This document shows, piece by piece, positions 7,559 to 22,574 of a DNA stretch of 38,478 nucleotides. The notes below the pieces were generated by a model that was not told the origin of the DNA, searched no databases, and was given only the letters and a program-made list of their open reading frames with translations. The stretch spans positions 1 to 38,478 of the forward strand of contig JAFANP010000010.1 of assembly GCA_019232625.1 (NCBI GenBank), given 5' to 3'. The position numbers and the translations under genes were made by a program. Position 1 is the stretch's first letter; each line of letters starts with the position of its first letter. The stretch is from Alphaproteobacteria bacterium. Lineage in GTDB: Bacteria > Pseudomonadota > Alphaproteobacteria > Sphingomonadales > Sphingomonadaceae.

Positions 7559-7632
7559 TGCCCGATCGTCTAATGGTAAGACTACGGACTCTGACTCCGT
7601 CAATCGAGGTTCGAATCCTCGTCGGGCATCCA
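7559..7632 (+). tRNA. tRNA-Gln (anticodon CTG)
   Basis: A 74-nt cloverleaf with acceptor stem TGCCCGA/TCGGGCA, discriminator T and an encoded CCA end. The D-loop region is TCGTCTAATGGTAAGAC and the anticodon stem ACGGA/TCCGT encloses the loop CTCTGAC, giving anticodon CTG (reads CAG). The T-arm is CGAGGTTCGAATCCTCG. The U1-A72 pair is the typical identity feature of tRNA-Gln. It lies 36 bp after rlmE. Confidence 0.97.
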
Positions 7633-8519: not shown

Positions 8520-9099
8520 GGCGGGGCGCGCTGCCGAGCCGGCGCAGCCCGGTCGCGATCAGCGCGGGGCCCGCGCAGGCGCCGCCGCCGCGCCGGTCGA
8601 GTGGAAGCGCGGCAAGGTCGGGGACGAGGCTTCCCGCCATTTCCACCCGGTCGCCCGGTCTCAGCGCGATGCGCAGGCCGAACGCCCAGATGACGACGGT
8701 CGTGCCGTTGCCGTCGCTCAGCACGCGCGCCTCCCGCGGCCAGACGATGATCACGTTGCCGCTGCCGCCCTTGACGCGCGCTGCCGCTGATCGCGGCCAG
8801 ACGATGATGGTGGTACCGCCGCCGTCTCGCTTCGCCTGCGCGGGGGGCGAGTGGGGCCAGATCACGACCGTGCTGCCGCCGCCGCGGCGACGGGGGACGG
8901 CCGGTCGAGGCCGGATCGCCGCTGTCTCTACGGAGAGCGCGAGGCAGCCGGCGGACCGCGTCAGCGCGCCCGCGACACGCGCGTCCGCCGGCGGCGTGGC
9001 GATCCCGGCGGCGAGTCGGGGAAAGGCCGGAGCCGGGCGCTCCGCCGCTCCGGCGGCGGTCGCCAGCATGGCGGCGGCGAGGATCGGAAAGCGGAGCAT
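8515..9099 (-). CDS. Exported protein with four-fold V/I-I-V/I-W-P repeat, unknown function
   Basis: A 194-residue protein with signal peptide LRFPILAAAMLATAAGAA. The start is ATG at 9099, preceded by GGGAGG; upstream in-frame starts have no signal peptide. Residues 73-140 contain four tandem units, each beginning with a Gly-rich turn and a beta-strand: GGGSTVVIWP, GGGTTIIVWP, GSGNVIIVWP, GNGTTVVIWA. Their Trp residues are at 81, 101, 120 and 138. The pattern suggests a small beta-solenoid or beta-sheet surface with an exposed Trp ladder. A Cys pair (52 and one near 173) flanks the repeats. No family is recognised. It is divergent from the M28 peptidase gene. Confidence 0.65.
   Translation of the reverse strand: MLRFPILAAAMLATAAGAAERPAPAFPRLAAGIATPPADARVAGALTRSAGCLALSVETAAIRPRPAVPRRRGGGSTVVIWPHSPPAQAKRDGGGTTIIVWPRSAAARVKGGSGNVIIVWPREARVLSDGNGTTVVIWAFGLRIALRPGDRVEMAGSLVPDLAALPLDRRGGGACAGPALIATGLRRLGSAPRP
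8680..8883 (-). repeat. Four tandem 54-60 bp coding repeats (Trp-Pro units)
   Basis: On the plus strand the units read as variants of ggccagatgatgacggt followed by a GGTGCCGCC-like block, about 60, 57 and 54 bp apart. The shrinking spacing (20, 19, 18 residues between Trp) suggests duplication followed by small deletions in the linkers, while the strand and Trp are conserved. Confidence 0.7.
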
Positions 9100-9178
9100 G
9101 AGCGCCTCCCTTGCGGAGCGGGCGTTGTACCACGCCGCCGCATCGCATCCAAATCGCGCCGGGGGGCGTTGGGCCGGG

Positions 9179-10687
9179 ATGATCCGGACCCTGCCGACCG
9201 CCCTCGCTCTGGCGCTGCTGGCCGGCTGCGCGACGGCGCCGCCGATCCGCGACGCCGACACCCGCGCCTGGTGGAGGACGACGGCGGACCTGTCGAGCGA
9301 CCGAATGGAGGGCCGCGACACCGGCTCCGCCGGCTACGAGCGCGCCGCCGCCTATGTCGCCGAGCGATTCCGCCGCGCCGGCCTCGTCCCGGCGGGCGAG
9401 GGCGGCACCTATTTCCAGCGGGTCCCGCTCAGCGAGGTGCGGGTCGAGAAGGCGGGGACCGCGTTCGAGATCGTCCGCGACGGGGGCGCCGCCGTGCCGC
9501 TGCGCTTCCTCCACGACATCAACGTCCGCCCGACCGAGCGCCTCCCCGCCGCCCTCGACGCGCCGCTCGCCTTCCGCGGCTATTGCTCGAAGTCGGAGAT
9601 GCGCGACGTGAGGGGCCGGATCGCCATCTGCTTCAACGCCCGCCGCACCGCCGGGGAGCGCAACGCCGCGGCGCTGGCGGCCGGGGCGGCGGGGCTGATC
9701 GCCGTCGACAATCCCTATTTCACCGTCGAGCCGCCGCGCTGGCCGGCCGCCTATGCCCGCACCGTCCGGATCGCCGGCGCCGAGCCGCTGCCCGACGCCG
9801 CGCTCGCCGTCTTCCGCCTCAATGCCGACGCCTTCGCCGCGCTCCTCCAGGGTTCCGGCCGCGATGCCGCCGCGATCCTCGCCGCGGGCGGCCGCGACGC
9901 GCCGCTCGCCGCCTTCGACGTCCCCGCCCGGCTGCGCGCCCGCCTCGATCTGCGCACCGCCCGCTACAGCGCGCCCAACGTCCTCGCCGTGCTTCCGGGC
10001 ACCGACCTCAAGGACCGCTATCTCGTCCTCGGCGCCCATCTCGACGGCTACGGCCGTGGCGAGCCGGTGGACGGCGACGGGCTCTACAACGGCACGCTCG
10101 ACGATGCCGCCTATGTCGCTCTCCTCGCGCGGCTCGCCGACAATCGAAAGGGCCGCCCGTTCCGCCGCTCGGTCCTGTTCGCCGCCTTCACCGGCGAGGA
10201 GAAGGGGCTGCTCGGCTCCAATCACTACGTGAGGCATCCCACCGTGCCGCTCGCCGCGAGCGACGCGATGATCAACCTCGACCAGCTGCGCCCGCTCTTC
10301 CCGCTCGACCTCCTCACCATGCTGGCGGTCGACCGATCCAGCCTCGGCGAGACGGCCCGGGCGGTCGCGGGGCCGATGGGGATACGAATCCAGGCCGATC
10401 CGGAGCCGGAGCGCGGCCTCCTCCAGCGCGCCGACCACTGGCCGTTCCTGCAGGCCGGCATTCCCGCCACCGGCTTCATCTTCGGCTACGTGCCCGGCAC
10501 CGAGGCGGAGCGCCGCTACCGGCTCTGGTACCGCACCCGCTACCACCATCCCGCCGACGACCTTTCCCAGCCGATGGACTTCGCGGCGGCCGCGAAGTTC
10601 AACAGCTTCTTCTATCGGCTCGTCGAGGCGGTCGCGGACGCGCCGGACGCCCCGCGCCTCCTGCCTTCGGCCGCGCCCGGGCGCTGA
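9179..10687 (+). CDS. M28 family zinc aminopeptidase, lipoprotein
   Basis: A 502-residue lipoprotein (lipobox LLAGC in ALALALLAGC) of the M28 aminopeptidase family, acting in the periplasm or at the outer membrane. After the N-terminal segment comes a PA-type insert (about residues 110-240). The di-zinc catalytic domain follows. Its readable ligands are His287 in LGAHLDG, Asp308 in GTLDD, the catalytic Glu340 and adjacent ligand Glu341 in TGEEKGLLGSN, Asp368 in INLDQ, and a final His at 456/457 in RYHHPADD. All key residues are present, so it should be active. The ATG at 9179 gives the signal peptide directly. The open frame extends upstream to 8282 but that part is antisense to other genes. 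A likely intrinsic terminator follows at 10696. Confidence 0.92.
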   Translation: MIRTLPTALALALLAGCATAPPIRDADTRAWWRTTADLSSDRMEGRDTGSAGYERAAAYVAERFRRAGLVPAGEGGTYFQRVPLSEVRVEKAGTAFEIVRDGGAAVPLRFLHDINVRPTERLPAALDAPLAFRGYCSKSEMRDVRGRIAICFNARRTAGERNAAALAAGAAGLIAVDNPYFTVEPPRWPAAYARTVRIAGAEPLPDAALAVFRLNADAFAALLQGSGRDAAAILAAGGRDAPLAAFDVPARLRARLDLRTARYSAPNVLAVLPGTDLKDRYLVLGAHLDGYGRGEPVDGDGLYNGTLDDAAYVALLARLADNRKGRPFRRSVLFAAFTGEEKGLLGSNHYVRHPTVPLAASDAMINLDQLRPLFPLDLLTMLAVDRSSLGETARAVAGPMGIRIQADPEPERGLLQRADHWPFLQAGIPATGFIFGYVPGTEAERRYRLWYRTRYHHPADDLSQPMDFAAAAKFNSFFYRLVEAVADAPDAPRLLPSAAPGR

Positions 10688-10695
10688 CGGGACGG

Positions 10696-10723
10696 GCCGC
10701 CGCGCGAGGCGGCTCGCTTTTCT
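10696..10723 (+). terminator. Intrinsic terminator after the M28 gene
   Basis: The stem GCCGCC/GGCGGC with loop gcgcga is followed by tcgcttttct, giving a short T run. It lies 9 bp after the stop codon. Confidence 0.5.
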
Positions 10724-10794
10724 CGCCGGGCTCGGCATGATGGCCGCCCGCGACTCGGCCCGGCGAAGGCCGGTCGCGTAGCCAGGGGGGGCGC

Positions 10795-12789
10795 ATGAGC
10801 TATCTCGAACGACCGCGACTCGTCTTCAGCGGCCGCTTTCAGGCCGACGTGTCGACGGTGAACAACGACGTGCGGCATTATGCCAACGGCGCCTTCGAGG
10901 AGCGTTTCCAGTCCCGCCAGAACGGCGATCTCAACGGATGGTGGAACCCGGAAGGGTCGGGCGCCTTCCGCCTCGTCGGCGCAAGGGTGACGGGCGCGGA
11001 CTCGGGCGAAGCGGCCGGCGCCGACCCGGCCGTCGGCCTCCATGTCGCCGGCAACGTGGATTGCGCGCCGGCCAAGCTCGTCGATCTCGATCCCCAGTTC
11101 CAGATGGGCTCGATGATCTGGGGCCTCCAGATGGTGCTGACCGACGGGACCACCGAATATCTGCGCGGCGATTATGCGCCCGCGCCGTTCCGCGACCTGT
11201 TCTTCGGCCGGATCGCCACCGCCGCCGGCAGCGGCGGCGCCTCGGCCAAGTTCACCAGCGTCCTCGAGAACCTGGTCTGGGGGGAAGCGGCCAAGGGCTC
11301 CCCGACGCTCGCCGCGCTCAAGGCCCTCGCCGACAAGGCGGGCGGCCGGCTGTCCGTCAGCCTCACCACCATCGGCTATTATTCCAACGCGAAGAGCGCC
11401 GACTTCACGCTCGGCCTGCTCGTCGGCGCGATCGGCCCGTGGCGGGAGGGCGAGCCGCTCTTCTTCCCGGCGGCGCGGCGCTTCGCCCCGGCGGACGGCC
11501 AGGGCGGCGCCACGGCGACGCTCAACCTCAATTTCTGCGACGGCTGGACGGACGGCCGCAGAGTCACGATCGACCTCGCCAATTGCCTGCCCCTCCAGGA
11601 TCGCGCCGGAACGGTGACCGACGTCGGGCCGCTCACCCTCGCCATGCTGCGGGCGCCGGACAAGACGACCTCGTCCGGCGGAACGACGACGATCGAGGCC
11701 GGCACACCCCAGAATGCGGCGGTGACGCCCGCCGATTACGCGGTCATCGGCGAAATCGACTATCGCGCCGCCGGCTGGCTGACGGCGACCGCGGGCCTCG
11801 CCAGCTTCGATACCGATCTCGGCGCGGATCTCGAAGACCGCCCGCTCGCGCTGATCGCCGACGGGCCCGACGGCGGCAAGGTGGTCGCGCTGCGCGAGAC
11901 GATCGCGGGCTATTTCGCTCGCGCCGACGCGTTCGAGCAGCGCGCCGATCCGGGCGCGAGGCCCGCTCGGCTCGCGGTGGACATCCAGGCGCGATGCTTC
12001 GGCCGTCCGCTCGGGGGCGCGCCGCTGGTGGTCGCGCTCGAGCCGCGCCAGTCCGGAGGGGGCACCGGCGGGAGCGAGCCGCGGCCGCCCAAGGCGCCGG
12101 TCCCCGACATCAACTTCCCCGCCGCCGCGATCGGCCTGGACGGCCACGGCCGTTACAAGACGAACAAGAGGGGCTTGGCCGAGGTCCGCATCTCCGCCGC
12201 CGACCCCGGCGATCCGCGCGACTATATCGACGGCCAGATCTACATGCTGGATTACGGCCTCGCGGTCGCCGGCGCCTCGCCGATGCACGCTTTGGACAAG
12301 ATAGTCCTCCACGTGCGGGAGGCCTTTTCCGGGCCCGCCTCGCCGCAATGGAGCGACGTCGCGCCGATCTTCACCCAGTTCGCCAACCTCTATCCGGTGA
12401 TGAGCCGGCGGATGTTCGACTTTTCCGACATGGCGACCGCGGCGGAGAAGGCGAAGATCCTCCGCTTCGCCCTGACCCGGCCGATCGGCGACCCGAACCA
12501 CATGCCCGTCACCCGCGACCTCTCCGCCGGCAAGCGGCGGATGCTGCTCGCCTGGCTCGACAAGTTCGCGCCGCAACTGCCGGCCGAGACCGAGGCCGAG
12601 GCGGCGGCCGAGGCTGCCGAGGAGGCCGTCGCCGCCTATCCGCCCGCCCCCGTCGGCGAGGCGAGGCCGGAGGGACGGCGAGTGGCGCTGCAGCGCCTCA
12701 AGGGCATGTCGAGCGAACGGGCGGAGGAGGAGCAGGCGGCGCGGGAAGACGCGCGCGCCGCCGCGCCGCCGGCCGAAGGGGAGATCTGA
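10795..12789 (+). CDS. VioB N-terminal-domain-like protein (split iminophenylpyruvate dimer synthase homologue)
   Basis: A 664-residue cytoplasmic protein without signal peptide. It resembles the N-terminal half of VioB/RebD/StaD, the enzymes that couple two oxidised tryptophan imines in violacein and indolocarbazole synthesis. The start SYLERPRLVFSGRFQADV parallels the SILDFPRIHFRGWARV start of VioB. VGAIGPWREGE and VTIDLANCLP have counterparts in VioB. The end of the domain, LYPVMSRRMFDFSDMA...MPVTRDLSAGKRRMLLAWLDK, matches VioB YPFMSDKVFSLAD...MPSTRELSAPKARLFLKYL. Comparisons are from memory, not alignment. The last 80 residues are an Ala/Glu-rich tail not seen in VioB. A GGGGGG purine run precedes the ATG. 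The next gene begins 2 bp after its stop and supplies the C-terminal half. Confidence 0.75.
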   Translation: MSYLERPRLVFSGRFQADVSTVNNDVRHYANGAFEERFQSRQNGDLNGWWNPEGSGAFRLVGARVTGADSGEAAGADPAVGLHVAGNVDCAPAKLVDLDPQFQMGSMIWGLQMVLTDGTTEYLRGDYAPAPFRDLFFGRIATAAGSGGASAKFTSVLENLVWGEAAKGSPTLAALKALADKAGGRLSVSLTTIGYYSNAKSADFTLGLLVGAIGPWREGEPLFFPAARRFAPADGQGGATATLNLNFCDGWTDGRRVTIDLANCLPLQDRAGTVTDVGPLTLAMLRAPDKTTSSGGTTTIEAGTPQNAAVTPADYAVIGEIDYRAAGWLTATAGLASFDTDLGADLEDRPLALIADGPDGGKVVALRETIAGYFARADAFEQRADPGARPARLAVDIQARCFGRPLGGAPLVVALEPRQSGGGTGGSEPRPPKAPVPDINFPAAAIGLDGHGRYKTNKRGLAEVRISAADPGDPRDYIDGQIYMLDYGLAVAGASPMHALDKIVLHVREAFSGPASPQWSDVAPIFTQFANLYPVMSRRMFDFSDMATAAEKAKILRFALTRPIGDPNHMPVTRDLSAGKRRMLLAWLDKFAPQLPAETEAEAAAEAAEEAVAAYPPAPVGEARPEGRRVALQRLKGMSSERAEEEQAAREDARAAAPPAEGEI

Positions 12790-12791
12790 AG

Positions 12792-13814
12792 ATGCTCCAG
12801 ATAGCGTCGTCCTACATCGAGCGGGTCGCCTCGGCCGAGGCGCCGGAGGACCTCTACGATCTCGTCAACGACGCGATCCGGCTCGAGCACGCCACCATCC
12901 CCGCCTATCTGTCGGCCTGGTTCAGCCTCAAGCCGGGCACCAATGCGGAGGTCGGCGCGATATTGCGCAGCATCGTCATCGAAGAGATGCTGCACATGGC
13001 GATCGCCTCCAACCTGCTCATCGCGATCGGCGGAGCCCCGAAGATCGACGAGCCCGGGTTCATCCCGACCTATCCGGGCCCGCTTCCGATGGACGTCGGC
13101 CACGGCGTCATCGTCGGCCTGGAGCGCTGCTCGACCCGGCTCATCGTCGAGACCTTCATGCAGATCGAGGAACCGGAGCAGGTCCTCCAATTCCCCAGCG
13201 TGCTGGAATCGGTCTCGCCGGTCGCAACGATCGGGCAGTTCTACAAGGAGCTGCTCGTCAAGCTGAAGGACCTGGGGCCCGGTGCCTTCAAGGGCGATTT
13301 CTCGCGCGAGCTCACGGGCACCCAATGGTTCTCGGACCAGTTGTTCGAGATCAACGACTTCGACAGCGCCAGCCGCGCGGTCGAGATCATCGTCGTGCAG
13401 GGGGAGGGGACGACGCAGTCGCCCGACGACGCGTCGGGCGAGCTCGCCCATTATTACCGCTTCCGCCAGGTGGTGGAGGGCCGCCTGCTGGTCCAGGGTC
13501 CGAGCGGCGGCTGGGCCTATGCCGGCGCTCCGGTCTCGCTCGACAATAACGGCGTCTATCCGATGAAGGCCAATGCGAAGAGCGCCGACTATCCGCCGGG
13601 AAGCCGCGCCCGCGCCGTGGTCGATACGTTCAACGCCGCCTATTCCGATCTCCTTCGCTCCCTCCACTGCACCTTCAACGGCGAGAAGGCGCAGATCGAC
13701 GTCGCCATGGGGCTGATGTACGATCTGCGCTTCGCCGCGCAGGACGTGCTTGCGACGCCTAACCCGTCCGGCAGCGGGGTCTGCGGCCTTCCCTTCGAAT
13801 ACGTGCCGGCCTGA
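12792..13814 (+). CDS. Ferritin-like domain protein (VioB C-terminal half homologue)
   Basis: A 340-residue protein matching the ferritin-like domain that forms the C-terminal part of VioB/RebD (Pfam Ferritin-like, PF12902). Helix motifs carrying potential metal ligands are Glu32-His33 in AIRLEHATIPAYL, Glu65 and His68 in IVIEEMLHMAIASNLLIAIGG, and Glu217 and His220 in GELAHYYRFRQV. The first pair of helices parallels VioB VDLELSVMLQYL and IAHEEMIHYLVVNNLLMALG; VVQGEGTTQSP parallels VTDQGEGGALDSP. The ATG lies 2 bp after the stop of the N-terminal-half gene, so they are co-translated and probably form one complex. No VioA/RebO-type amino acid oxidase or other violacein gene is nearby, so the substrate is unknown. 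Confidence 0.85.
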   Translation: MLQIASSYIERVASAEAPEDLYDLVNDAIRLEHATIPAYLSAWFSLKPGTNAEVGAILRSIVIEEMLHMAIASNLLIAIGGAPKIDEPGFIPTYPGPLPMDVGHGVIVGLERCSTRLIVETFMQIEEPEQVLQFPSVLESVSPVATIGQFYKELLVKLKDLGPGAFKGDFSRELTGTQWFSDQLFEINDFDSASRAVEIIVVQGEGTTQSPDDASGELAHYYRFRQVVEGRLLVQGPSGGWAYAGAPVSLDNNGVYPMKANAKSADYPPGSRARAVVDTFNAAYSDLLRSLHCTFNGEKAQIDVAMGLMYDLRFAAQDVLATPNPSGSGVCGLPFEYVPA

Positions 13815-13915
13815 GCGCCGGCCGCAACTTCGCGATGGAGTGGGGCGGCCTCGCCGACTAAGGCTTGCCGCGCCGGCAGCGCCCGTCCGAAGGCGCGCCC
13901 CTGAAGGAGAGACTT

Positions 13916-15580
13916 ATGCGCGCCGCCGTCCTTGCCCTGCTCGCCGCGACCGCCGCCTGTGCCGCCCCGCCTTCCCGGCCGGCGGCGAGCGCCGAGGCGC
14001 CGTCGGGCTACAGCCTCGCCGCCCAGCGCGCCAAGATCGCGCGCATCGAGATGCGCCCCGACACCAGCTTCCTCACCGCCGAGGAGCGGGACGTCGTCAA
14101 CTATCTCATCGAGGCCGCCGACCTCCTCAACCCCGTCTTCCTGCGCCAGGTCAGCGCCGACAATCCGCGGGTGAGGGAGGAGATCGCCCGCTCCGCCCGG
14201 CCCGACCGGGCGCTCCTCCTCGACTGGTTCGACTTCAATGCCGGCCCGTGGGACACGCTCGCCGACAACCGGCCCTTCTGGGGCGAGCGCCCGCTCCCGC
14301 CCGGCGGCGGCGTCTACCCGGCCGATCTCACCAAGGAGGCGCTCGACTCCTATCTCGCCGCGCACCCGGACCGGAAGGAGGCGCTCACCAGCCCCTATAC
14401 GGTGGTGAAGCGCGACGGCGACCGCCTCGTCGCGGTGCCCTACAGCGTCGAGTACCGGCAGTGGCTGGAGCCGGCGGCGAAGCTGCTCGAGAAGGCCGCC
14501 GCCCGCACGAGCAATGCCAGCCTGAGGCGCTTCCTGACGCTGCGCGCGCAGGCCTTCCGCACCGACGATTATTATCCCTCTGAAATGGCCTGGATGGACG
14601 TCTCCGGCACGCCGATCGAGGTCGTGATCGGCCCCTACGAAGTCTATGTCGACAATCTCTACGCCCAGAAGACGGCGTTCGAATCCTACGTCACCGTCGC
14701 CGACCCGAAGCAGTCGGCGGCGCTCGCCCGCTACAAGGCCCTGCTCCCCGACATGGAGCGCAACCTGCCGGTCGACGCGAAGTACAAGGACGCCAACCGC
14801 CCCTTCTCCTCGCCGATCCTCGTCACCGAGGAGGTGCATGGCGGCGGCGAGGCCGGGCCGGGCATCCAGACCATCGCCTTCAACCTTCCCAACGACGAGC
14901 GGGTCCGTGCCGCCAAGGGCGCGAAGAAGGTCATCCTCGCCAACGTGCTCGGCGCCAAGTACGAGCGGATCGTGGCGCCGCTCGCCGGCCTCGTCTTCGT
15001 GCCCGACCAGGCCCGCTCGGTCACCAAGGCGTACATGACGCAGGAAACCCTGTTCCACGAGCTGTCGCACAGCCTCGGGCCGGGCATCCTGACGCTGGGC
15101 GGCCGCCAGACCACGGTCAATGCCGAGCTCAAGGACCAGTATAGCGCGATCGAGGAATCCAAGGCCGACGTGATGGGGGCCTGGAACATCCTCTACCTCA
15201 TGCACCGCGGCGAGCTGCCGCTGGCCGAGCGCGAGCAGCTCCTCGCCAGCTACGTGGCCGACGTCTTCCGCCACCTGCGCTTCGGCACCGCCGACGCGCA
15301 CGGCCGCGGCGCGGCGATGCAATACGGCTTCCTGAGGGAGCGGGGCGGCCTCGCCTGGGACTCCTCGGCGAAGCGCTTCCGGCTGGATTACGACAAGCTG
15401 GAGGCGGCCATACCGGCGCTCGTCGCCGAGCTGGTCAGGATCGAGGGCGACGGCGACTATGCCGGCGCCAAGGCCTTCCTCGACCGCTACGGCCGGCTCG
15501 ACCCGGACGCCCAGGCGGTGATCGCGACGATGGGGCACATCCCCGTCGACATCCAGCCCGTCTACCCGGCGCGGGTATAG
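13916..15580 (+). CDS. M49-like (dipeptidyl-peptidase III type) metallopeptidase, lipoprotein
   Basis: A 554-residue lipoprotein; the ATG at 13916 has AGGAGA upstream and gives a signal peptide ending LLAATAAC. The catalytic domain resembles bacterial members of the peptidase M49 group. It has a zinc motif HELSHSLGPG starting at His381 and the second motif EESKAD at 413-418, the counterpart of EECRAD in dipeptidyl-peptidase III. Classical M49 enzymes have the longer HEXXGH; here the spacing is a normal HEXXH, which I believe also occurs in bacterial relatives. The N-terminal helical domain (NYLIEAADLLNPVFLRQV, DWFDFNAGPWDTL) fits that family. It follows the VioB-like pair by 101 bp with its own ribosome binding site and could be co-transcribed, but no functional link is evident. 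Confidence 0.8.
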   Translation: MRAAVLALLAATAACAAPPSRPAASAEAPSGYSLAAQRAKIARIEMRPDTSFLTAEERDVVNYLIEAADLLNPVFLRQVSADNPRVREEIARSARPDRALLLDWFDFNAGPWDTLADNRPFWGERPLPPGGGVYPADLTKEALDSYLAAHPDRKEALTSPYTVVKRDGDRLVAVPYSVEYRQWLEPAAKLLEKAAARTSNASLRRFLTLRAQAFRTDDYYPSEMAWMDVSGTPIEVVIGPYEVYVDNLYAQKTAFESYVTVADPKQSAALARYKALLPDMERNLPVDAKYKDANRPFSSPILVTEEVHGGGEAGPGIQTIAFNLPNDERVRAAKGAKKVILANVLGAKYERIVAPLAGLVFVPDQARSVTKAYMTQETLFHELSHSLGPGILTLGGRQTTVNAELKDQYSAIEESKADVMGAWNILYLMHRGELPLAEREQLLASYVADVFRHLRFGTADAHGRGAAMQYGFLRERGGLAWDSSAKRFRLDYDKLEAAIPALVAELVRIEGDGDYAGAKAFLDRYGRLDPDAQAVIATMGHIPVDIQPVYPARV

Positions 15581-15697: not shown

Positions 15698-16618
15698 ATG
15701 GATTACCAGGCTATTCTCGACCAGGTGGTGGCGGACGTCTCCGCCTATCGCGGCCAGGGCACGGTCGCCTCCTACATCCCCTCGCTGGCCCGCGCCGATC
15801 CGCACAAGTTCGGCATCGCCGTCGCGCTGGAGGACGGCGCCGCCTTCGTCGCCGGCGACGCGGACGAGACCTTCTCGATCCAGAGCCTGTCCTACGTCTT
15901 CACCTTGAACCTCGCCCTGCAGCAGCTCAAGTCGGCGCTCTGGAACCATGTCGGGCGCGAGCCCTCCGGTGCGCCGGTCAGCTCGATCGTCCAGCTCGAG
16001 ATCGAGCGGGGCCGGCCGCGCAACCCGATGACCAGCCCCGGCGCGATCGTCGTGTGCGACCAGCTGATCGGCCGCCGTCCCGCTGCCGAAGCCGCGGACG
16101 AGCTGATCGGCTTCCTGCGCGAGCGGGCGGGGGACCAGGGGATCGGAATCGACGAGGGCCTCGCCATGTCGGAATCGCAAGCGGGCGCCTTCAACCGCAG
16201 CCTCGCCCATTTCATCGCCGCCTTCGGCAACCTCAGGAATCCGGTCGAGGACGTGCTCGGCCTCTATTACCGCCATTGCTCGATTGCGATGAGCTGCCGT
16301 CAGCTCGCCCGCGCCGCCCTCTACCTCGCCTTCGACGGAACCGATCCCGTCTCCGGCGACGCGGTGACCACCCAGTCGCGCTCCCGACGAATCAACGCGC
16401 TGATGCTGACCTGCGGCCATTACGACAATAGCGGCGACTTCGCCTTTCGCGTCGGCCTTCCCGGCAAGAGCTCCGTCGCCGGCGCCATCCTCGCCGTCGC
16501 CCCCGGCAGGGGCTCGGTCTGCGTCTGGTCCCCCGGCCTCAACGCCGCCGGCACCTCCCTCGTCGGCGCAATCGCGCTGGAACGCCTCGTCGAAGCCACC
16601 GGCTGGTCGGTCTTCTGA
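15698..16618 (+). CDS. Glutaminase A family protein with altered active site
   Basis: A 306-residue protein clearly of the beta-lactamase-like glutaminase family (GlsA/YbaS), which hydrolyses glutamine to glutamate and ammonia. The start is ATG 15698 with AGGAG upstream. Most substrate residues are recognisable: Ser63 in FSIQSLSYVF, the SES...FNRS block (E161/N168 equivalents), the Tyr in LGLYYRHCSI, the Tyr in TCGHYDNSGDFAFRVGLP and the Val in KSSVAG. Two usual active-site positions differ. The catalytic lysine of the Ser-x-x-Lys pair (QSISK in normal enzymes) is Tyr66. The Asn of the INAG motif is Ser113 in PMTSPGAIVV. The gene is otherwise intact. It may be inactive, a binding protein, or use a modified mechanism. 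Confidence 0.88.
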   Translation: MDYQAILDQVVADVSAYRGQGTVASYIPSLARADPHKFGIAVALEDGAAFVAGDADETFSIQSLSYVFTLNLALQQLKSALWNHVGREPSGAPVSSIVQLEIERGRPRNPMTSPGAIVVCDQLIGRRPAAEAADELIGFLRERAGDQGIGIDEGLAMSESQAGAFNRSLAHFIAAFGNLRNPVEDVLGLYYRHCSIAMSCRQLARAALYLAFDGTDPVSGDAVTTQSRSRRINALMLTCGHYDNSGDFAFRVGLPGKSSVAGAILAVAPGRGSVCVWSPGLNAAGTSLVGAIALERLVEATGWSVF

Positions 16619-17360: not shown

Positions 17361-20300
17361 TCAGGCCAGCCATTCCGGCGCGGCCGACAGCGGGCCGCCG
17401 CCGGCGGGGATCGACATCATCATGATCGTGCCGGAATCGTCGTTGGTGATGAAGGCGTGCGCGAAGCTGCCGTTGCCCGCGTCCACCACGACCGACTCCG
17501 CGAACTCGAGGACATTGTCGGCGGTGGGATCGACGATGATCTGCGCGGTCGCGCTGCCGGCCGCGAAGGTGACCGTGCCGAGCCCGGTGCCGCCGTCGTA
17601 GCCGGTCGCGCCGGACAGCGTGAAGTCGGCCGAATCCGCCGTCCCGGTCACCGCGAAGTCGGTGACCAGCGTGCCCGACGTGTCGCCGCTCCGGGTGAAG
17701 GTGTAGACGAGGTTGGTGCCGCCGTCCTCGTCGACCGAGACGGACGAGACGGTGACGGTGACGAAGGCCGGCGAGGCATTGCCGGTGAAGCCGACCGTCG
17801 AGGCGGAGGAGGTCGAGCCCGACACCACGTGGTTGCGGGCGTCCATGTAGGCGTTGACCGCCGCCGTGTCGGTCGGCGCGCCGAGATAATGGTCGAGGTT
17901 GACCGTGCCGTCGTTGCGCTGGCGGACGCGAATGTCGCCGCCGCCGAGGCTGCCGCCGAGCGAGTGGGTGAAGGTGTTCGCCAGCGCGCCCGCGCCGCCT
18001 ATGTCGAGGTCGAGATGGGAGGTGACGCCGGGGCCGGTGATCGCGTTCTGGGCGAGGATCCCGTTCGTCGCGTTGCCGCTGCCGTCGAGCAGGATGTCGA
18101 TGGCGTTGCCCGTGATGGTCGCGCGCAGCGTGCCGTTGCCGTCCTGGCCTTCCTGCAGGAGAATCGCCCGCGTCGTCCCGGCATAGGAGATGACGTTGTC
18201 GGTGATCGCCACGTTCATGGTCCCGCCGCCGGGATTGCTGACGGAGATGCCGTCGGCGGTGACTCCGTTCGCGGTGCTGATCGTGTTGCCGTCGAGACGC
18301 GCGTCGAACTCATAGCCGGTGTCGAACGCCGATCCGACCAGGCTTACGACGGTGAAGTCGCCCGTTCCGCTGCTCAGCGTGTTGCCGGTCGCGTCCAGGT
18401 CCACGTGGCTGCTGTCGCCGGCGCTGACCGTGAGCTGGTCGTTGTTGCCGCTCGAAATGCTGTTCGCGACGCGCAGGTTCATCGTCGCGCCGTCGAAGGC
18501 GTCGGCGACGATGCCGCCTCCGTTATTGTTCTGGCTGGTGGCGTTTTCGAGGCCGATATTGGCCGTCGCGGTGCCGCGGATGCCGAAGAGGTAGCCGCCG
18601 CCGAGCACGGCGGCGGAGGCGCTCCCTCCGGAGACGTAGAGGTCGAGATTGCCCGACTGCATCTGCAGGTTGAGATTGTCGTCGCCGCTGCCGGTGATCG
18701 TGGTGTTCACGATCCGGCCGGTCCCCAGCATGTTGTAGAAATGGATGCCGTCCTCGTCGGAGGCATTGCCGACGCCGGTGATGGTCGAGTTGAGCAGCGC
18801 GAAATTGGTGACGTTGTTGCCGTTGATTGCCTGCTCGGCGCCGCCGGTTATGTCGATGTTGTCGAGCAGGACGTTGGTCACCGTCGCCAGGTGGATGGCG
18901 GCGTTGGTGTCGAGATTGTCGCCGACGGCGAGGCCTCCGTTGGTCGGGTCGAGATCGACGCTCCCCGCATTGGTCAGGACCATGTTGGCGAGGCTGATGT
19001 CGTGCGCGTTGGTGACGCTGATGCCGCGGCCGGTCGTGTTGAGGATGCTGCCGCCCGAGCCGTCGGCGGTGCCGATGCCGGTGACGGCGAAGCCGCCGCC
19101 CGATCCCGTGTTGGCGAGGACGATGCCGTTCGTTGCGCCGTTGACCGATACGCTCTCCAGCGTGACTCCGGCGGCGCCGATGGCGGTGCCGCTGATCGTC
19201 ACCGCGGTGCCGGTGGTCGAGGTGACGCTGCTGCCCGGGCCGGTGACGGTCACGGTGCCGCCGCCGGTGGCGTTGAGCCCGGCGCCGCTGGTGGTGACGA
19301 TGTCGAATCCGCCGTCCAGCGCCAGCGAGCCGCTGTTGCCGACGAAGTTTATGCCCGTCGCCGCCCCGGTCGAAACCGTCCCGCCGCCTTCCAGGCTCAC
19401 GGCGAGCGAGGTGCCGGTGATGTCGATCCCGCCGCCGCTCTGGGTGCCGGTGATCGTCGTCGCGCCGGTGACGGTGAAGCTGCCGCCCACGCCGGCAAGG
19501 TCGATCGCGCCGCCGGCGGAACCGAGCGACTCGGCGCCGTTCAGGGTGACGTTGAGCGTGCCGCCCTGGTCGACGTCGATGATCTGGCCGGTGCCCGAGG
19601 TGCCGACGTCGGAGATGGTGAGCGTGCCGACGCTGCCGCCGCTGTCGGCGATGTCGGCGCCGCTGGTGTTGCCGATGTCGATCCCGGAGATGACGTTGTT
19701 CTGGGCGACGTTGATGCCGTCGCCCGCGGTCGCCTCGATCGTCGGGCGCACCGCGCCGGTGGAGTCGCCGACCAGTATCTGCCCGTTGAGCAGGTTGATC
19801 CCGTCCGCCTCGGCATAGATGCCGGTGCCGGTCCCGGCGAGCAGGTGGACGGTGTGTCCGGGCTGCGGCCCCCCGAGCGTGCCCTGGGCCGCGTTGAACG
19901 CGGCGATCGAGGTGAACGGATCGGCGGCGGTGCCGGTGTTGGCGCTGCCGACGGCGCTGTTGTCGATGAACCAGACCGTCTGCGGGCCGACGCCGACGCC
20001 TGCGCCGGTGATGGTGATGGTGACGTTCTGGGTGGCGGTTCCGCCATGGCCGTCGGCGATCTGGACCGTATAGGTCTGGATCCGGATCTCTCCTTCGCTG
20101 AGGCCCTCCAGCGCGGCGTCGGACACCGAGAAGTCCCAGCCCACGCTGTCGCCCGGCTGGTCGACCGGATCGAGGCTGAACGTGCCGAGATAGAAGGCGC
20201 CCTGGGGCGTGAAGCTGGCGCTGTGCGTGTCGCTGACGTCCACGTCGTTGAACGCGATCGTTCCGCTGTCGCTGTGCACCGTCACGTTCTCGCCCGGATC

Positions 20301-22574
20301 CCCGTCGGGAAGCTCGGCCACCGAGCCGCTGGCGTCGGTGCCGCTCGCGTCGATCGTCGGCGCGTCGTTGACGCCGTTGACGGTGATGGTGAGGTTGGCG
20401 CTGTCCGACTGCGAGCCGTCGGAGGCGGTGTAGCTGAATACGTCCTGCGCGCTCTCGCCCGCGGCGAGGCCGTTCGCGGCGGCGTTGGGCGCGTAGGTGT
20501 AGCTGCCGTTGGCGTTGAGGGTGAGGGTCCCGTAGGTGCCGGCATAGGTGCCGGGGTTGGTCACCGTCAGGGGGTCGTTCTCGGCGTCGGTGTCGTTGGC
20601 GAGCACGTTGCCGGAGACGCTGCTATCCTCGTTGGTCGTCGCGCTGTCGTCGATGGCGTTGGGTGCGCCGCTGAGGCCGTTGACCGTGACGGTGAGCGTC
20701 GCCGTGTCCGAGACGGTGCCGTCCGAGGCGATGTAGGTGAAGACGTCGTTCGCCGACTGGCCGTTGTTGAGCGCGGCCGCGGCTGCGCCAGGCGTGTAGG
20801 TGTAGGTGCCGTTGGCGGCGAGCACGAGGGTTCCGTAGGCGCCGATGAAGGTGCCGGGATTGATCACCGTCAGCGGGTCGTCGGGGTCGGTGTCGTTGGC
20901 GAGCACGTTGCCCGAGACGGGGCTGTTCTCGTCGGTGGTGGCGGTGTCGTCGTTGGCGACCGGGGCGTCGTTGATCCCGGTGACGGTGACGGTGAGCGTC
21001 GCGGTGTCGGAGGCGGTGCCGTCGGTCGCGGCGTAGGTGAAGACGTCCTGCACCACGTCGCCGGTATCGAGCGCCTGCGCCGCCGCTCCGGGCGTGTAGG
21101 TATAGCTGCCGTCGGCGGCGACGACCAGGGTGCCGTAGGTGCCGGCATAGGTGCCCGGATTCGCCACCGTCAGGGTCTCGCCGTCGACGTCGGTGTCGTT
21201 GGCGAGGACGTTGCCCGACACACCGGAGGAGTCCTCGGTCGTTGAGGCGGAGTCGTCATTCGCCACCGGCGCGTCGTTGGCGCCGTTGACCGTGACGGTG
21301 AGCGTCGCCGTCGAGGAGGCGGTGCCGTCGGAGGCGGTGTAGGAGAAGACGTCCTGCGCCGTCTCGCCGGTGTCCAGGCCCTGGGCCGCCGCGTTGGGCG
21401 CGTAGGTGTAGCTGCCGTCGGCGGCCAGCGTCAGGGTGCCGTAGGAGCCGACATAGGTGCCGGGGTTGGCCACCGTCAGCGGTTCGACGTCCACGTCGGT
21501 GTCGTTGGCGAGCACGTTGCCGGAGACGCTGGCATCCTCGCTCGTCGACGCGGAGTCGTTATTGGCGACGGGAGCGTCGTTGGCGCCGTTGACGGCGATC
21601 GTGACGGTGGAGCTCGAGGTGGCGCCGAACTCGTCCTTGATCGTGTAGCTGACGACGACGGTGGCGGTCTCGCCGGTGTCGAGATAGTCGAAGTCGGTCC
21701 CCGGATCGAACCGGACCTGGTTTCCGACCACCGAGGCGCTGCCCTGGCCGGAAGGCGCCGACGCGGCGGTGACGGTGAGGACGGCGCCGTTGTCGACGTC
21801 GGTGTCGTTGGCGAGCACGTTGACCGTCACCGGCGAATTCTCGCCGGTCGAGGCGGTGTCCGCGTGGGCGACCGGCGCGTCGTTGACGCCGGCGAGGTTG
21901 ATCGTCAGCGTCCCAGTGTCGCTGAGGCTGCCGTCCGAGACCACGTAGTTGAAGCTGTCCTGCACCACCTGGCCCTGGGCCAGCGACTGGGCGGCGGCGT
22001 AGGGCGTGTAGGTGTAGGTGCCGTTCGCGTTGAGGACGAGCGTGCCGTAGACGCCGGCATAGGTGCCGGGATTGGCCACCGTGAGGCTGTTATGCTCCCA
22101 GTCGAAGTCGTTGGCGAGCACGCTCGAGCCGGAATAGGTGCCGACGTCCTCGTTGGTCGAGGCGGTGTCGTCGAACGCCAGCGGCGCATTGTTGTGCTCG
22201 AGGTCGATCGTGATGTCGGAGAATCGCAGCCGCTCGACCTGGAGCAGGCGGTCGTTGCCGTCGATATGGGTGCCGCCGGTATGGCTGACGAACAGATTCT
22301 CGCCGTTGCGCGAGAAGCTGTATTCGAGAACCGAGCCCGAATAGACGGCGGTGTCGGTGCCGTTGCCGCCATGGATGAAGTCGTCGCCCTGGCCGCCGAC
22401 CAAAGTGTCGTCGCCCTCGTCGCCGTGCAGAGTGTCGTTGCCCGCGCCGCCGTCGAGATAGTCGTTGCCGGCCTTGCCCTGCAGGAAATCGTCCCCGCCG
22501 AGGCCGTACATGTAGTCGTCGAACTTGGTGCCCTTGAGATTGTCGCCGCCGCCAGTGCCTGTATAGGTCGTCAC
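17361..22574 (-). CDS. Giant RTX / VCBS-repeat / beta-helix / Calx-beta secreted or adhesin-like protein
   Basis: A 1737-residue protein, no N-terminal signal peptide, so type I secretion is the likely route. The start is GTG at 22574 (VTTYTGTGGGDNLKG), with GAGGGGA upstream; the in-frame ATG at 22763 reads non-conserved sequence. Domain order: six RTX calcium nonapeptides (YGLGGDDFL, QGKAGNDYL, DGGAGNDTL and relatives; residues about 25-80), then seven VCBS/cadherin-like repeats of about 100 residues with NDAPVA and SGNVLANDTD cores (about 126-860). A right-handed beta-helix region follows, with a TAADPFTSIAAFNAAQG cap and many short Gly/Asn turns (about 865-1580), then a Calx-beta domain (VSVDEDGG; about 1598-1715). 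The tail ends APEWLA. Such modular proteins are surface adhesins or biofilm matrix components; this role is inferred. RTX repeats at the N-terminus rather than the C-terminus are unusual. Confidence 0.9.
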   Translation of the reverse strand: MTTYTGTGGGDNLKGTKFDDYMYGLGGDDFLQGKAGNDYLDGGAGNDTLHGDEGDDTLVGGQGDDFIHGGNGTDTAVYSGSVLEYSFSRNGENLFVSHTGGTHIDGNDRLLQVERLRFSDITIDLEHNNAPLAFDDTASTNEDVGTYSGSSVLANDFDWEHNSLTVANPGTYAGVYGTLVLNANGTYTYTPYAAAQSLAQGQVVQDSFNYVVSDGSLSDTGTLTINLAGVNDAPVAHADTASTGENSPVTVNVLANDTDVDNGAVLTVTAASAPSGQGSASVVGNQVRFDPGTDFDYLDTGETATVVVSYTIKDEFGATSSSTVTIAVNGANDAPVANNDSASTSEDASVSGNVLANDTDVDVEPLTVANPGTYVGSYGTLTLAADGSYTYAPNAAAQGLDTGETAQDVFSYTASDGTASSTATLTVTVNGANDAPVANDDSASTTEDSSGVSGNVLANDTDVDGETLTVANPGTYAGTYGTLVVAADGSYTYTPGAAAQALDTGDVVQDVFTYAATDGTASDTATLTVTVTGINDAPVANDDTATTDENSPVSGNVLANDTDPDDPLTVINPGTFIGAYGTLVLAANGTYTYTPGAAAAALNNGQSANDVFTYIASDGTVSDTATLTVTVNGLSGAPNAIDDSATTNEDSSVSGNVLANDTDAENDPLTVTNPGTYAGTYGTLTLNANGSYTYAPNAAANGLAAGESAQDVFSYTASDGSQSDSANLTITVNGVNDAPTIDASGTDASGSVAELPDGDPGENVTVHSDSGTIAFNDVDVSDTHSASFTPQGAFYLGTFSLDPVDQPGDSVGWDFSVSDAALEGLSEGEIRIQTYTVQIADGHGGTATQNVTITITGAGVGVGPQTVWFIDNSAVGSANTGTAADPFTSIAAFNAAQGTLGGPQPGHTVHLLAGTGTGIYAEADGINLLNGQILVGDSTGAVRPTIEATAGDGINVAQNNVISGIDIGNTSGADIADSGGSVGTLTISDVGTSGTGQIIDVDQGGTLNVTLNGAESLGSAGGAIDLAGVGGSFTVTGATTITGTQSGGGIDITGTSLAVSLEGGGTVSTGAATGINFVGNSGSLALDGGFDIVTTSGAGLNATGGGTVTVTGPGSSVTSTTGTAVTISGTAIGAAGVTLESVSVNGATNGIVLANTGSGGGFAVTGIGTADGSGGSILNTTGRGISVTNAHDISLANMVLTNAGSVDLDPTNGGLAVGDNLDTNAAIHLATVTNVLLDNIDITGGAEQAINGNNVTNFALLNSTITGVGNASDEDGIHFYNMLGTGRIVNTTITGSGDDNLNLQMQSGNLDLYVSGGSASAAVLGGGYLFGIRGTATANIGLENATSQNNNGGGIVADAFDGATMNLRVANSISSGNNDQLTVSAGDSSHVDLDATGNTLSSGTGDFTVVSLVGSAFDTGYEFDARLDGNTISTANGVTADGISVSNPGGGTMNVAITDNVISYAGTTRAILLQEGQDGNGTLRATITGNAIDILLDGSGNATNGILAQNAITGPGVTSHLDLDIGGAGALANTFTHSLGGSLGGGDIRVRQRNDGTVNLDHYLGAPTDTAAVNAYMDARNHVVSGSTSSASTVGFTGNASPAFVTVTVSSVSVDEDGGTNLVYTFTRSGDTSGTLVTDFAVTGTADSADFTLSGATGYDGGTGLGTVTFAAGSATAQIIVDPTADNVLEFAESVVVDAGNGSFAHAFITNDDSGTIMMMSIPAGGGPLSAAPEWLA
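19990..22200 (-). repeat. Seven tandem VCBS/cadherin-like coding repeats, period about 300 bp
   Basis: The NDAP (or NNAP/GAPN) starts fall near 22195, 21882, 21580, 21280, 20977, 20670 and 20374, a period of 296-313 bp. Five middle or outer units share LTVxNPGTYxGxYGTL and the YTYxPxAAA block. Units 2 and 7 are more divergent. The repeats are similar at DNA level and could recombine. Confidence 0.85.

What the first reader, a model, noticed from the sequence alone, without database searches (positions are those of the whole stretch)
10795..13814. Split VioB-like enzyme: N-terminal and ferritin-like halves as adjacent genes with no pigment cluster
The sequence shows two genes 2 bp apart. The first ends with a MSRRMFDFSD...MPVTRDLSAGKRR block like the middle of VioB, and the second starts with ferritin-like helices EHATIPAYL and EEMLHMAIASNLL like the VioB C-terminal half. 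In VioB, RebD and StaD these are one polypeptide that dimerises oxidised tryptophan. Here the fusion point is a stop-start pair, the first protein has an extra Ala/Glu tail, and no VioA/RebO, VioC/D/E or exporter is nearby. This suggests a two-subunit dimer synthase working on another substrate, or the ancestral unfused form.
Basis: partly seen in the sequence, partly recalled or inferred. Interest (0 to 1): 0.72.

Follow-up and report, generated by a model that had tools for sequence, protein, structure and literature searches.

The report
Two-gene cousin of VioB pigment enzyme
The window carries a two-gene version of VioB, the enzyme known for joining two tryptophan-derived molecules when bacteria make the pigment violacein; the two-gene form turns out to be widespread and often sits beside export genes of the ebo type, so it may start pathways to small molecules that are not yet identified.

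Summary
Gene 1 (10795-12789) is collinear with VioB 1-580; gene 2 (12792-13814), a PF12902 ferritin-like protein, with VioB 595-933; control comparisons give nothing. The split is real but not odd: of 84 gene-1 copies in 79 loci from at least eight phyla, 78 are followed directly by gene 2 and 2 are fused. The partners co-evolve, also where two pairs lie in tandem. Six likely iron-ligand residues are shared with four VioBs. It is not a VioB ortholog. Here the pair is a roughly 3.3 kb insert beside peptidase genes, absent from the 13 relatives' regions examined; the genome holds two further VioB-like pairs. The most useful find is context: 20 of 79 loci carry at least four of six ebo export genes and 26 of 79 an unassigned secreted protein; none of 12 stand-alone PF12902 loci does (shorter flanks). 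I found no report of this link. Best reading: a two-subunit, iron-dependent oxidative coupling enzyme for amino-acid-derived imines or keto acids. Chemistry and substrate are inferred, not shown.

The parts
10795..12789 (+). Gene 1: VioB-N-like subunit, 664 aa; conserved core about residues 1-593, then a variable Ala/Glu-rich tail
12577..12786 (+). Variable low-complexity tail of gene 1 (about residues 595-664), mostly predicted disordered, not conserved
   Evidence: alignment; pLDDT under 50 at 614-644 and 646-664
12776..12783 (+). Purine-rich AAGGGGAG inside the end of gene 1, 8 nt before the gene-2 ATG; likely ribosome-binding site (sequence reading, inference)
12792..13814 (+). Gene 2: PF12902 ferritin-like subunit, 340 aa; E32, E65, H68, E126, E205, H220 conserved and identical in four VioBs
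10643..13933 (.). Stretch of about 3.3 kb holding the pair that has no counterpart between the M28 and M49 peptidase genes of relative G690 (edges as given by BLAST, so approximate; the right edge lies inside the start of the M49 gene)
8669..10687 (+). Flanking gene, not part of the system: M28 family peptidase
13916..15580 (+). Flanking gene, not part of the system: M49 family peptidase, with a glutaminase (15698-16618) after it

Best explanation
Genes 1 and 2 encode the two subunits of a VioB/RebD-type oxidative coupling enzyme. Gene 2 is a ferritin-like helical subunit whose conserved Glu/His set holds iron and does the oxidative chemistry. Gene 1 is a mostly beta subunit that packs on it, as the N-terminal half presumably does in VioB, and shapes the substrate pocket. 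The reaction would be the joining of two amino-acid-derived imines or alpha-keto acids into a dimeric scaffold, with the amino-acid oxidase supplied in trans here. In many other bacteria the product is then exported by the ebo proteins and finished by a secreted partner protein. In this strain the pair is a 3.3 kb insert, most simply gained by transfer. Shown: homology, collinearity, subunit pairing by co-evolution, residue conservation, genomic context, empty site in relatives. Inferred: iron use, complex formation, coupling chemistry, substrate, export of the product.
For: Gene 1 profile positions 1-581 align with VioB 1-580 (prob. 99.2, E 3.7e-19) and gene 2 with VioB 595-933 (98.8, E 5.4e-17); swapped halves, reversed and shuffled VioB give prob. 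1.8 or less. The gene-1 profile finds the four VioB proteins directly at 47.7-62.7 bits. 78 of 84 gene-1 copies in 79 loci are followed by gene 2 (median gap 13 bp, 20 overlapping by 1 or 4 bp), 2 are fused into one chain. Gene-1 and gene-2 distances correlate over 85 pairs (r 0.835; largest of 1000 permutations 0.096, which do not correct for species kinship); the stricter test is within genomes: in 5 of 5 loci with tandem pairs own partners fit (0.85-0.96) and swapped ones do not (-0.46 to 0.17). E32, E65, H68, E126, E205, H220 at 99-100% in 89 gene-2 rows and identical in 4 of 4 VioBs. The model of a natural fusion matches the PF12902 protein 3hl1 (TMt 0.74). 20 of 79 loci have at least 4 of 6 ebo genes, 26 of 79 the secreted protein; 0 of 12 stand-alone PF12902 loci have either. 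Pair absent beside M49 in relatives.
Against: No substrate-supplying oxidase is conserved beside the pair: LodA-type oxidase in only 2 of 79 loci, and PF01593 is not among the 25 commonest families of 99 neighbours. No EboE found in this genome, and the secreted partner lies only by a divergent third pair. Identity to VioB is 21% and 24% in the aligned parts. No invariant or nearly invariant His or Cys in gene 1 marks a heme site, although VioB is reported to use heme b (PMC9705886, passage). PF12902 occurs without detectable gene 1 (12 loci), and divergent gene-1 relatives occur in a genome without a PF12902 match (G422). 42 of 79 loci have neither ebo nor the secreted protein in the stretch held. 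Gene 1 and a natural fusion were modelled; no two-chain complex was, and gene 2 of the window was not modelled alone.
Confidence: 0.45

Rival explanations
1. The pair is a two-subunit iron oxidase or oxygenase of different chemistry (for example hydroxylation or ring oxidation of one aromatic molecule); the VioB fold and metal site are shared, but no dimer is made.
For: Only scaffold and likely ligand residues are kept, with 21-24% identity. Among 99 neighbour genes scanned the commonest Pfam family is glyoxalase/dioxygenase superfamily (11 of 99), with ABM monooxygenase in 3 of 99; no background rate was measured. The pair on C33 follows an ABM-glyoxalase fusion.
Against: The closest studied relative, VioB, is a coupling enzyme (PMC9705886, passage); nearly the whole length of both subunits is collinear with it.
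Confidence: 0.35
2. The pair is mainly a peroxide-removing or iron-handling protein that protects an oxidase pathway.
For: PF12902 genes lie near LodA/LodB genes, whose enzymes release hydrogen peroxide: L046 and L079 of 79 pair loci and plasmid locus L013, L142 and L145 of 12 stand-alone loci; a PF12902 gene near lodA-like genes was reported in five fungi (PMC4417212, passage). VioB is said to have catalase activity (PMC9705886, passage).
Against: 77 of 79 pair loci have no LodA-type gene in the stretch held (other oxidases were not counted per locus). A simple scavenger would hardly need a 590-aa partner that co-evolves so tightly (inference).
Confidence: 0.12
3. The pair is a decayed or accidentally split VioB gene without function.
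For: A stop-start junction falls where VioB is continuous.
Against: The same junction exists in 78 of 84 copies across at least eight phyla, both ORFs are intact and the likely ligand residues are conserved.
Confidence: 0.02

Closest known systems
VioB (iminophenyl-pyruvate dimer synthase, TIGR04492); RebD and StaD are its relatives by recall
   Same: Collinear over nearly the whole of both halves; similar start (MSYLERPRLVFSGRFQADVSTVNN here, MSILDFPRFHFRGFARANVPTANR in VioB); same six Glu/His residues in the ferritin-like part.
   Different: Two chains instead of one; far below the VioB equivalog cut-off; no vio gene seen beside it; 21-24% identity. In 4 of 10 genomes searched a full VioB and a separate split pair coexist. 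RebD and StaD sequences were not compared here.
PF12902 ferritin-like proteins, e.g. Caulobacter CC_0557 (3hl1)
   Same: Same family as gene 2; the fused model matches its fold.
   Different: 12 stand-alone PF12902 loci had no detectable gene-1 relative, ebo gene or secreted partner in the 6.4-13.5 kb held.
ebo / EDB clusters (ebo: scytonemin precursor export in Nostoc)
   Same: 20 of 79 pair loci carry at least four of six ebo genes near the pair.
   Different: No EboE found in the window's genome. In Nostoc the exported aromatic is made by ScyA-C, not by a VioB relative (PMC6282210, passages).
Natural fusions in Chitinophaga vietnamensis (L084) and a Pyrinomonadaceae MAG (L087)
   Same: Both subunits, same order, one chain of 926 and 903 aa.
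   Different: Fused; they form one clade nested inside the split forms.

Membership tests
VioB equivalog (TIGR04492) | Score above the curated cut-off of 1250 bits | tested here: not met
   17.7 bits (gene 1) and 23.1 bits (gene 2)
VioB equivalog (TIGR04492) | One polypeptide with N-terminal and ferritin-like halves | tested here: not met
   stop and start with a 2 bp gap
VioB equivalog (TIGR04492) | vioA, vioC, vioD, vioE beside it | tested here: inconclusive
   no PF01593 oxidase on contig C2; nine scanned proteins, eight from the window, none vio-like; VioC/D/E not searched genome-wide
VioB superfamily (both halves homologous) | Collinear homology of both halves | tested here: met
VioB superfamily (both halves homologous) | Conserved ferritin-like Glu/His set | tested here: met
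   six residues identical in 4 of 4 VioBs; metal binding itself not shown
VioB superfamily (both halves homologous) | Heme b, catalase activity and imine dimerisation | not testable with these tools
   biochemical; reported for VioB in PMC9705886 (passage)
RebD/StaD | Sequence similarity to RebD or StaD | not tested
   no RebD or StaD sequence was compared
PF12902 Ferritin-like | Gene 2 above the Pfam gathering score | tested here: met
   219.8 bits against 22.3
ebo-linked biosynthetic locus | ebo genes within about 10 kb of the pair | tested here: not met
   none in the window; no EboE found in the genome. Met in 20 of 79 related loci

The most novel reading that the evidence does not exclude
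The split VioB-type synthase is the recurrent biosynthetic core of an undescribed, phylum-spanning class of pathways: it joins two amino-acid-derived units in the cytoplasm, the ebo proteins carry the product across the inner membrane, and the conserved secreted protein of unassigned family finishes it outside, in parallel to scytonemin, where a coupled aromatic product is exported by ebo and finished by periplasmic ScyE. Clusters of the nematode-repellent EDB type would belong to the same world, with divergent gene-1 relatives.
Probability: 0.3. Interest if true: 0.78.

Novelty: new variant of a known kind. Interest (0 to 1): 0.56.

Why it matters
By recall, VioB-type coupling is known from a few pigment and bis-indole pathways and as one protein. 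A common two-subunit form in at least eight phyla suggests that the chemistry, or a relative of it, is more widespread; it gives separable subunits for work on an enzyme for which no solved structure was found (also stated in PMC9705886, passage); and it offers a biosynthetic candidate for what ebo clusters outside scytonemin producers export, which PMC6282210 leaves open (section 8).

Tried and rejected
Solved relatives by sequence: none for gene 1 at E 1; for VioB only five unrelated-looking hits, best E 0.13. Foldseek with the gene-1 model gave no global match among the 50 rows shown (TMq at most 0.15). Distribution: gene 1 in 1 of 26 genomes of the genus; 1 of 296 of the order with a full-length hit (four more hits of 73-105 aa at E 4.5e-5 to 4.9e-4 were taken for chance and not followed up); 3 of 398 of the phylum, of which 2 full-length and 1 divergent. 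PF12902 in 17 of 398: besides this genome and the pair-bearing G445, 12 of the other 15 were fetched and looked at; three weak ones (G343, G363, G475) were not. A frameshifted or broken VioB was rejected by distribution. Operon membership with the flanking peptidases was rejected: M28, M49 and glutaminase are neighbours without the pair in G690. The secreted partner matched only PF12902 in its fused form (Pfam, E 0.01), nothing in NCBIfam at E 1 and one PDB chain at E 0.57. One search mislabelled ebo and secreted genes because of a wrong reference; one search replaces it. Alignments A5 and A6 mixed the halves and were not used for folding; A9 was, with only 5 gene-2 rows and 2 fusions to support the C-terminal half. 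The neighbour scan covered 99 of the 164 neighbour genes selected; nine near-duplicate loci had been left out before. The genome scan kept the best 80 of 157 relatives (79 loci), so counts describe the closer relatives; loci differ in length (49 of 79 hold at least 18 kb: of these 18 have ebo, 18 the secreted protein). The P. fluorescens EDB paper (10.1038/ismej.2013.9) is not held; what is said of it comes from PMC6282210 (section 8).
Full report
WHAT IS THERE. Two intact genes lie on the + strand, 10795-12789 (664 aa) and 12792-13814 (340 aa), separated by two bases. A purine-rich stretch inside the end of gene 1 sits 8 nt before the gene-2 start, so coupled translation is likely (inference). 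The only Rfam match in the window at gathering scores is a tRNA at 7559-7629.

FAMILY. Gene 2 is PF12902 (219.8 bits). Gene 1 has no Pfam match at E 1. NCBIfam's VioB model touches both, collinearly, far under its cut-off. I built profiles from 90 gene-1 and 89 gene-2 rows and compared them with an alignment of four VioB proteins. Gene 1 aligns from its first residue to profile position 581 with VioB 1-580 (prob. 99.2) and gene 2 with VioB 595-933 (prob. 98.8). Swapped halves, a reversed and a shuffled VioB alignment give at most prob. 1.8. The gene-1 profile also finds the four VioBs directly (47.7-62.7 bits). It is not a VioB ortholog: four of ten pair-bearing genomes searched hold a full VioB as well.

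THE SPLIT IS THE RULE. A scan of GTDB species genomes gave 157 relatives; the best 80 (79 loci) were kept. They span Pseudomonadota 35, Bacteroidota 17, Acidobacteriota 7, Cyanobacteriota 6, Myxococcota 6, Actinomycetota 5, Planctomycetota 1, Chlorobiota 1, and one without a phylum rank. They hold 84 gene-1 copies: 78 followed by gene 2 on the same strand (gaps -4 to 171 bp, median 13; 20 overlap by 1 or 4 bp), 2 fused (L084, L087), 4 other (two at contig ends, one with gene 2 upstream, one with only a gene-2 remnant). The six annotated plasmid loci inspected, of eight found, also show 'hypothetical protein' then 'ferritin-like protein'. In a quick ML tree the two fused forms are one clade (SH-aLRT 100) nested among split forms; two changes explain fused versus split when VioB is included and the divergent rows are left out. 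The tree warns of long branches that meet at the root, so the ancestral state relative to VioB is open.

SUBUNITS. Over 85 pairs the distances of gene 1 and gene 2 correlate at 0.835 (largest of 1000 permutations 0.096; these do not correct for kinship). In the five loci with two tandem pairs, and for the window pair and the C33 pair of the same genome, own partners fit and swapped partners do not (the window's own value, 0.53, is the weakest). The gene-1 model is confident (pLDDT 87.6, pTM 0.87): mostly beta with C-terminal helices and a disordered tail; no solved structure shown resembles it as a whole. A model of the naturally fused L087 protein (pLDDT 84.5, pTM 0.75, with few rows for its C-terminal half) matches Caulobacter 3hl1 (TMt 0.74). 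E32, E65, H68, E126, E205 and H220 of gene 2 are 99-100% conserved in 89 rows and identical in four VioBs; that they bind iron is inference from the ferritin-like family.

CONTEXT ELSEWHERE. With ebo proteins of Aureibacter and Mycetohabitans as references, 20 of 79 loci hold at least four of six ebo genes; 26 of 79 hold a conserved, mostly secreted-looking protein of about 330 aa; 37 hold one or the other and 42 neither. Pfam agrees for four of six ebo representatives (DHQ synthase, phosphodiesterase, TatD, UbiA) and NCBIfam for EboE. As a yardstick, EboE occurs in 2 of 398 genomes drawn from the phylum, and 0 of 12 stand-alone PF12902 loci have an ebo gene or the secreted protein (these stretches are 6.4-13.5 kb, against up to about 22 kb for the pair loci). 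Most listed members of the secreted family start with a signal- or lipoprotein-like stretch by eye (no predictor was run; L050 and L051 as called do not); it is fused to gene 2 in L046 and has no convincing match in Pfam, NCBIfam or the PDB. Glyoxalase-superfamily proteins are the commonest family among 99 other neighbours scanned (11 of 99). LodA-type amino-acid oxidase genes lie near 2 of 79 pair loci and one plasmid locus and 2 of 12 stand-alone loci.

CONTEXT HERE. The window pair has no ebo gene or secreted partner. It sits between an M28 and an M49 peptidase gene. In the closest relative compared (G690; M49 protein 88% identical) M28, M49 and a glutaminase gene are direct neighbours without the pair; in G685 M28 also precedes M49; in the other 11 of 13 regions M28 was not found, and none of the 13 regions holds gene 1 or gene 2. 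DNA similarity to G690 stops at 10642 and resumes at 13934. Within the genus sample only this genome has gene 1 (1 of 26). It has three VioB-like pairs: this one, one on C33 (38% and 44% identical) and a divergent one on C15 in reversed order, beside which lies the only copy found of the secreted protein (51% identical). Acquisition by transfer is the simplest reading; loss elsewhere is not excluded. GC3 resembles the neighbours.

MECHANISM. VioB is reported to join indole-pyruvate imines and to hold heme b (PMC9705886, passages). The pair keeps the architecture and the candidate iron ligands, so oxidative coupling of amino-acid-derived imines or keto acids is my best guess (0.45), with a non-dimerising oxidation as the main rival (0.35). 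In Nostoc, ebo proteins export the scytonemin monomer, itself made by coupling indole-pyruvate with hydroxyphenylpyruvate, to the periplasm for ScyE (PMC6282210, passages). A VioB-type coupling enzyme plus ebo plus a secreted protein would be the same logic with another enzyme. That parallel is inference.

WHAT IS KNOWN. The main texts of two ebo papers do not hold the words ferritin, VioB or iminophenyl (PMC6282210, PMC5133447) and that of a third does not hold ferritin or VioB (PMC9235831) (word searches). Literature searches for ferritin-like with ebo cluster (12 of 42 papers listed), for VioB, ferritin-like and ebo terms together (1 paper) and for VioB-like or split VioB (2 papers) showed no report of the link; only open-licence PMC papers are covered and listings were what I saw. 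A PF12902 gene near lodA-like genes was reported for five fungi (PMC4417212, passages). In the six plasmid records inspected the pair is annotated only as hypothetical plus ferritin-like protein.

VERDICT. Observation confirmed; the split is ordinary for its family; I found no functional study of the family, and its link to ebo and a secreted partner is the part worth following.

Noticed in passing
L046:5546-6481 (+) and 26 of 79 pair loci; own genome C15 (L017:10558-11628 +): A conserved, mostly secreted-looking family of about 330 aa with conserved Cys and motifs such as YRHPQSFYFSG and NHPPRRDFIKHLPY, without a convincing Pfam, NCBIfam or PDB match (one PDB chain at E 0.57), linked to the pair and once fused to gene 2.
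   Followed up: partly
L158 (G422:C48:40000-59500): An ebo-bearing locus with two divergent gene-1 relatives (603 and 831 aa frames) and two proteins with signal-like starts, in a genome not among the PF12902 matches; it may be an EDB-type cluster, which was not verified.
   Followed up: partly
L142, L145 (stand-alone PF12902), L013, L046, L079: PF12902 genes near LodA/LodB-type quinoprotein amino-acid oxidase genes in bacteria, as earlier noted in fungi.
   Followed up: partly
L017:7558-10400 (-), L086:9-2500 (+): Divergent pairs in reversed gene order (ferritin-like first, then gene-1-like) in the window's genome and in Paraburkholderia sacchari, the latter cut at the edge of the locus.
   Followed up: no
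window 17361-22574 (-): A 1737-aa protein of cadherin-like and bacterial Ig repeats with RTX calcium-binding repeats, probably a secreted giant adhesin-like protein.
   Followed up: no
L069, L070, L071: Two tandem, strongly diverged pairs (32-34% identity between the gene-1 copies) next to six ebo genes and the secreted protein; the genomes of L069 and L070 also hold VioB, that of L071 gave no VioB match.
   Followed up: partly
G156 and G272 (order sample, L007 and L008): Two same-family genomes match residues 104-186 of gene 1 weakly (E 3.6e-4 and 4.9e-4) inside 591- and 453-aa frames; taken for chance but not examined.
   Followed up: no
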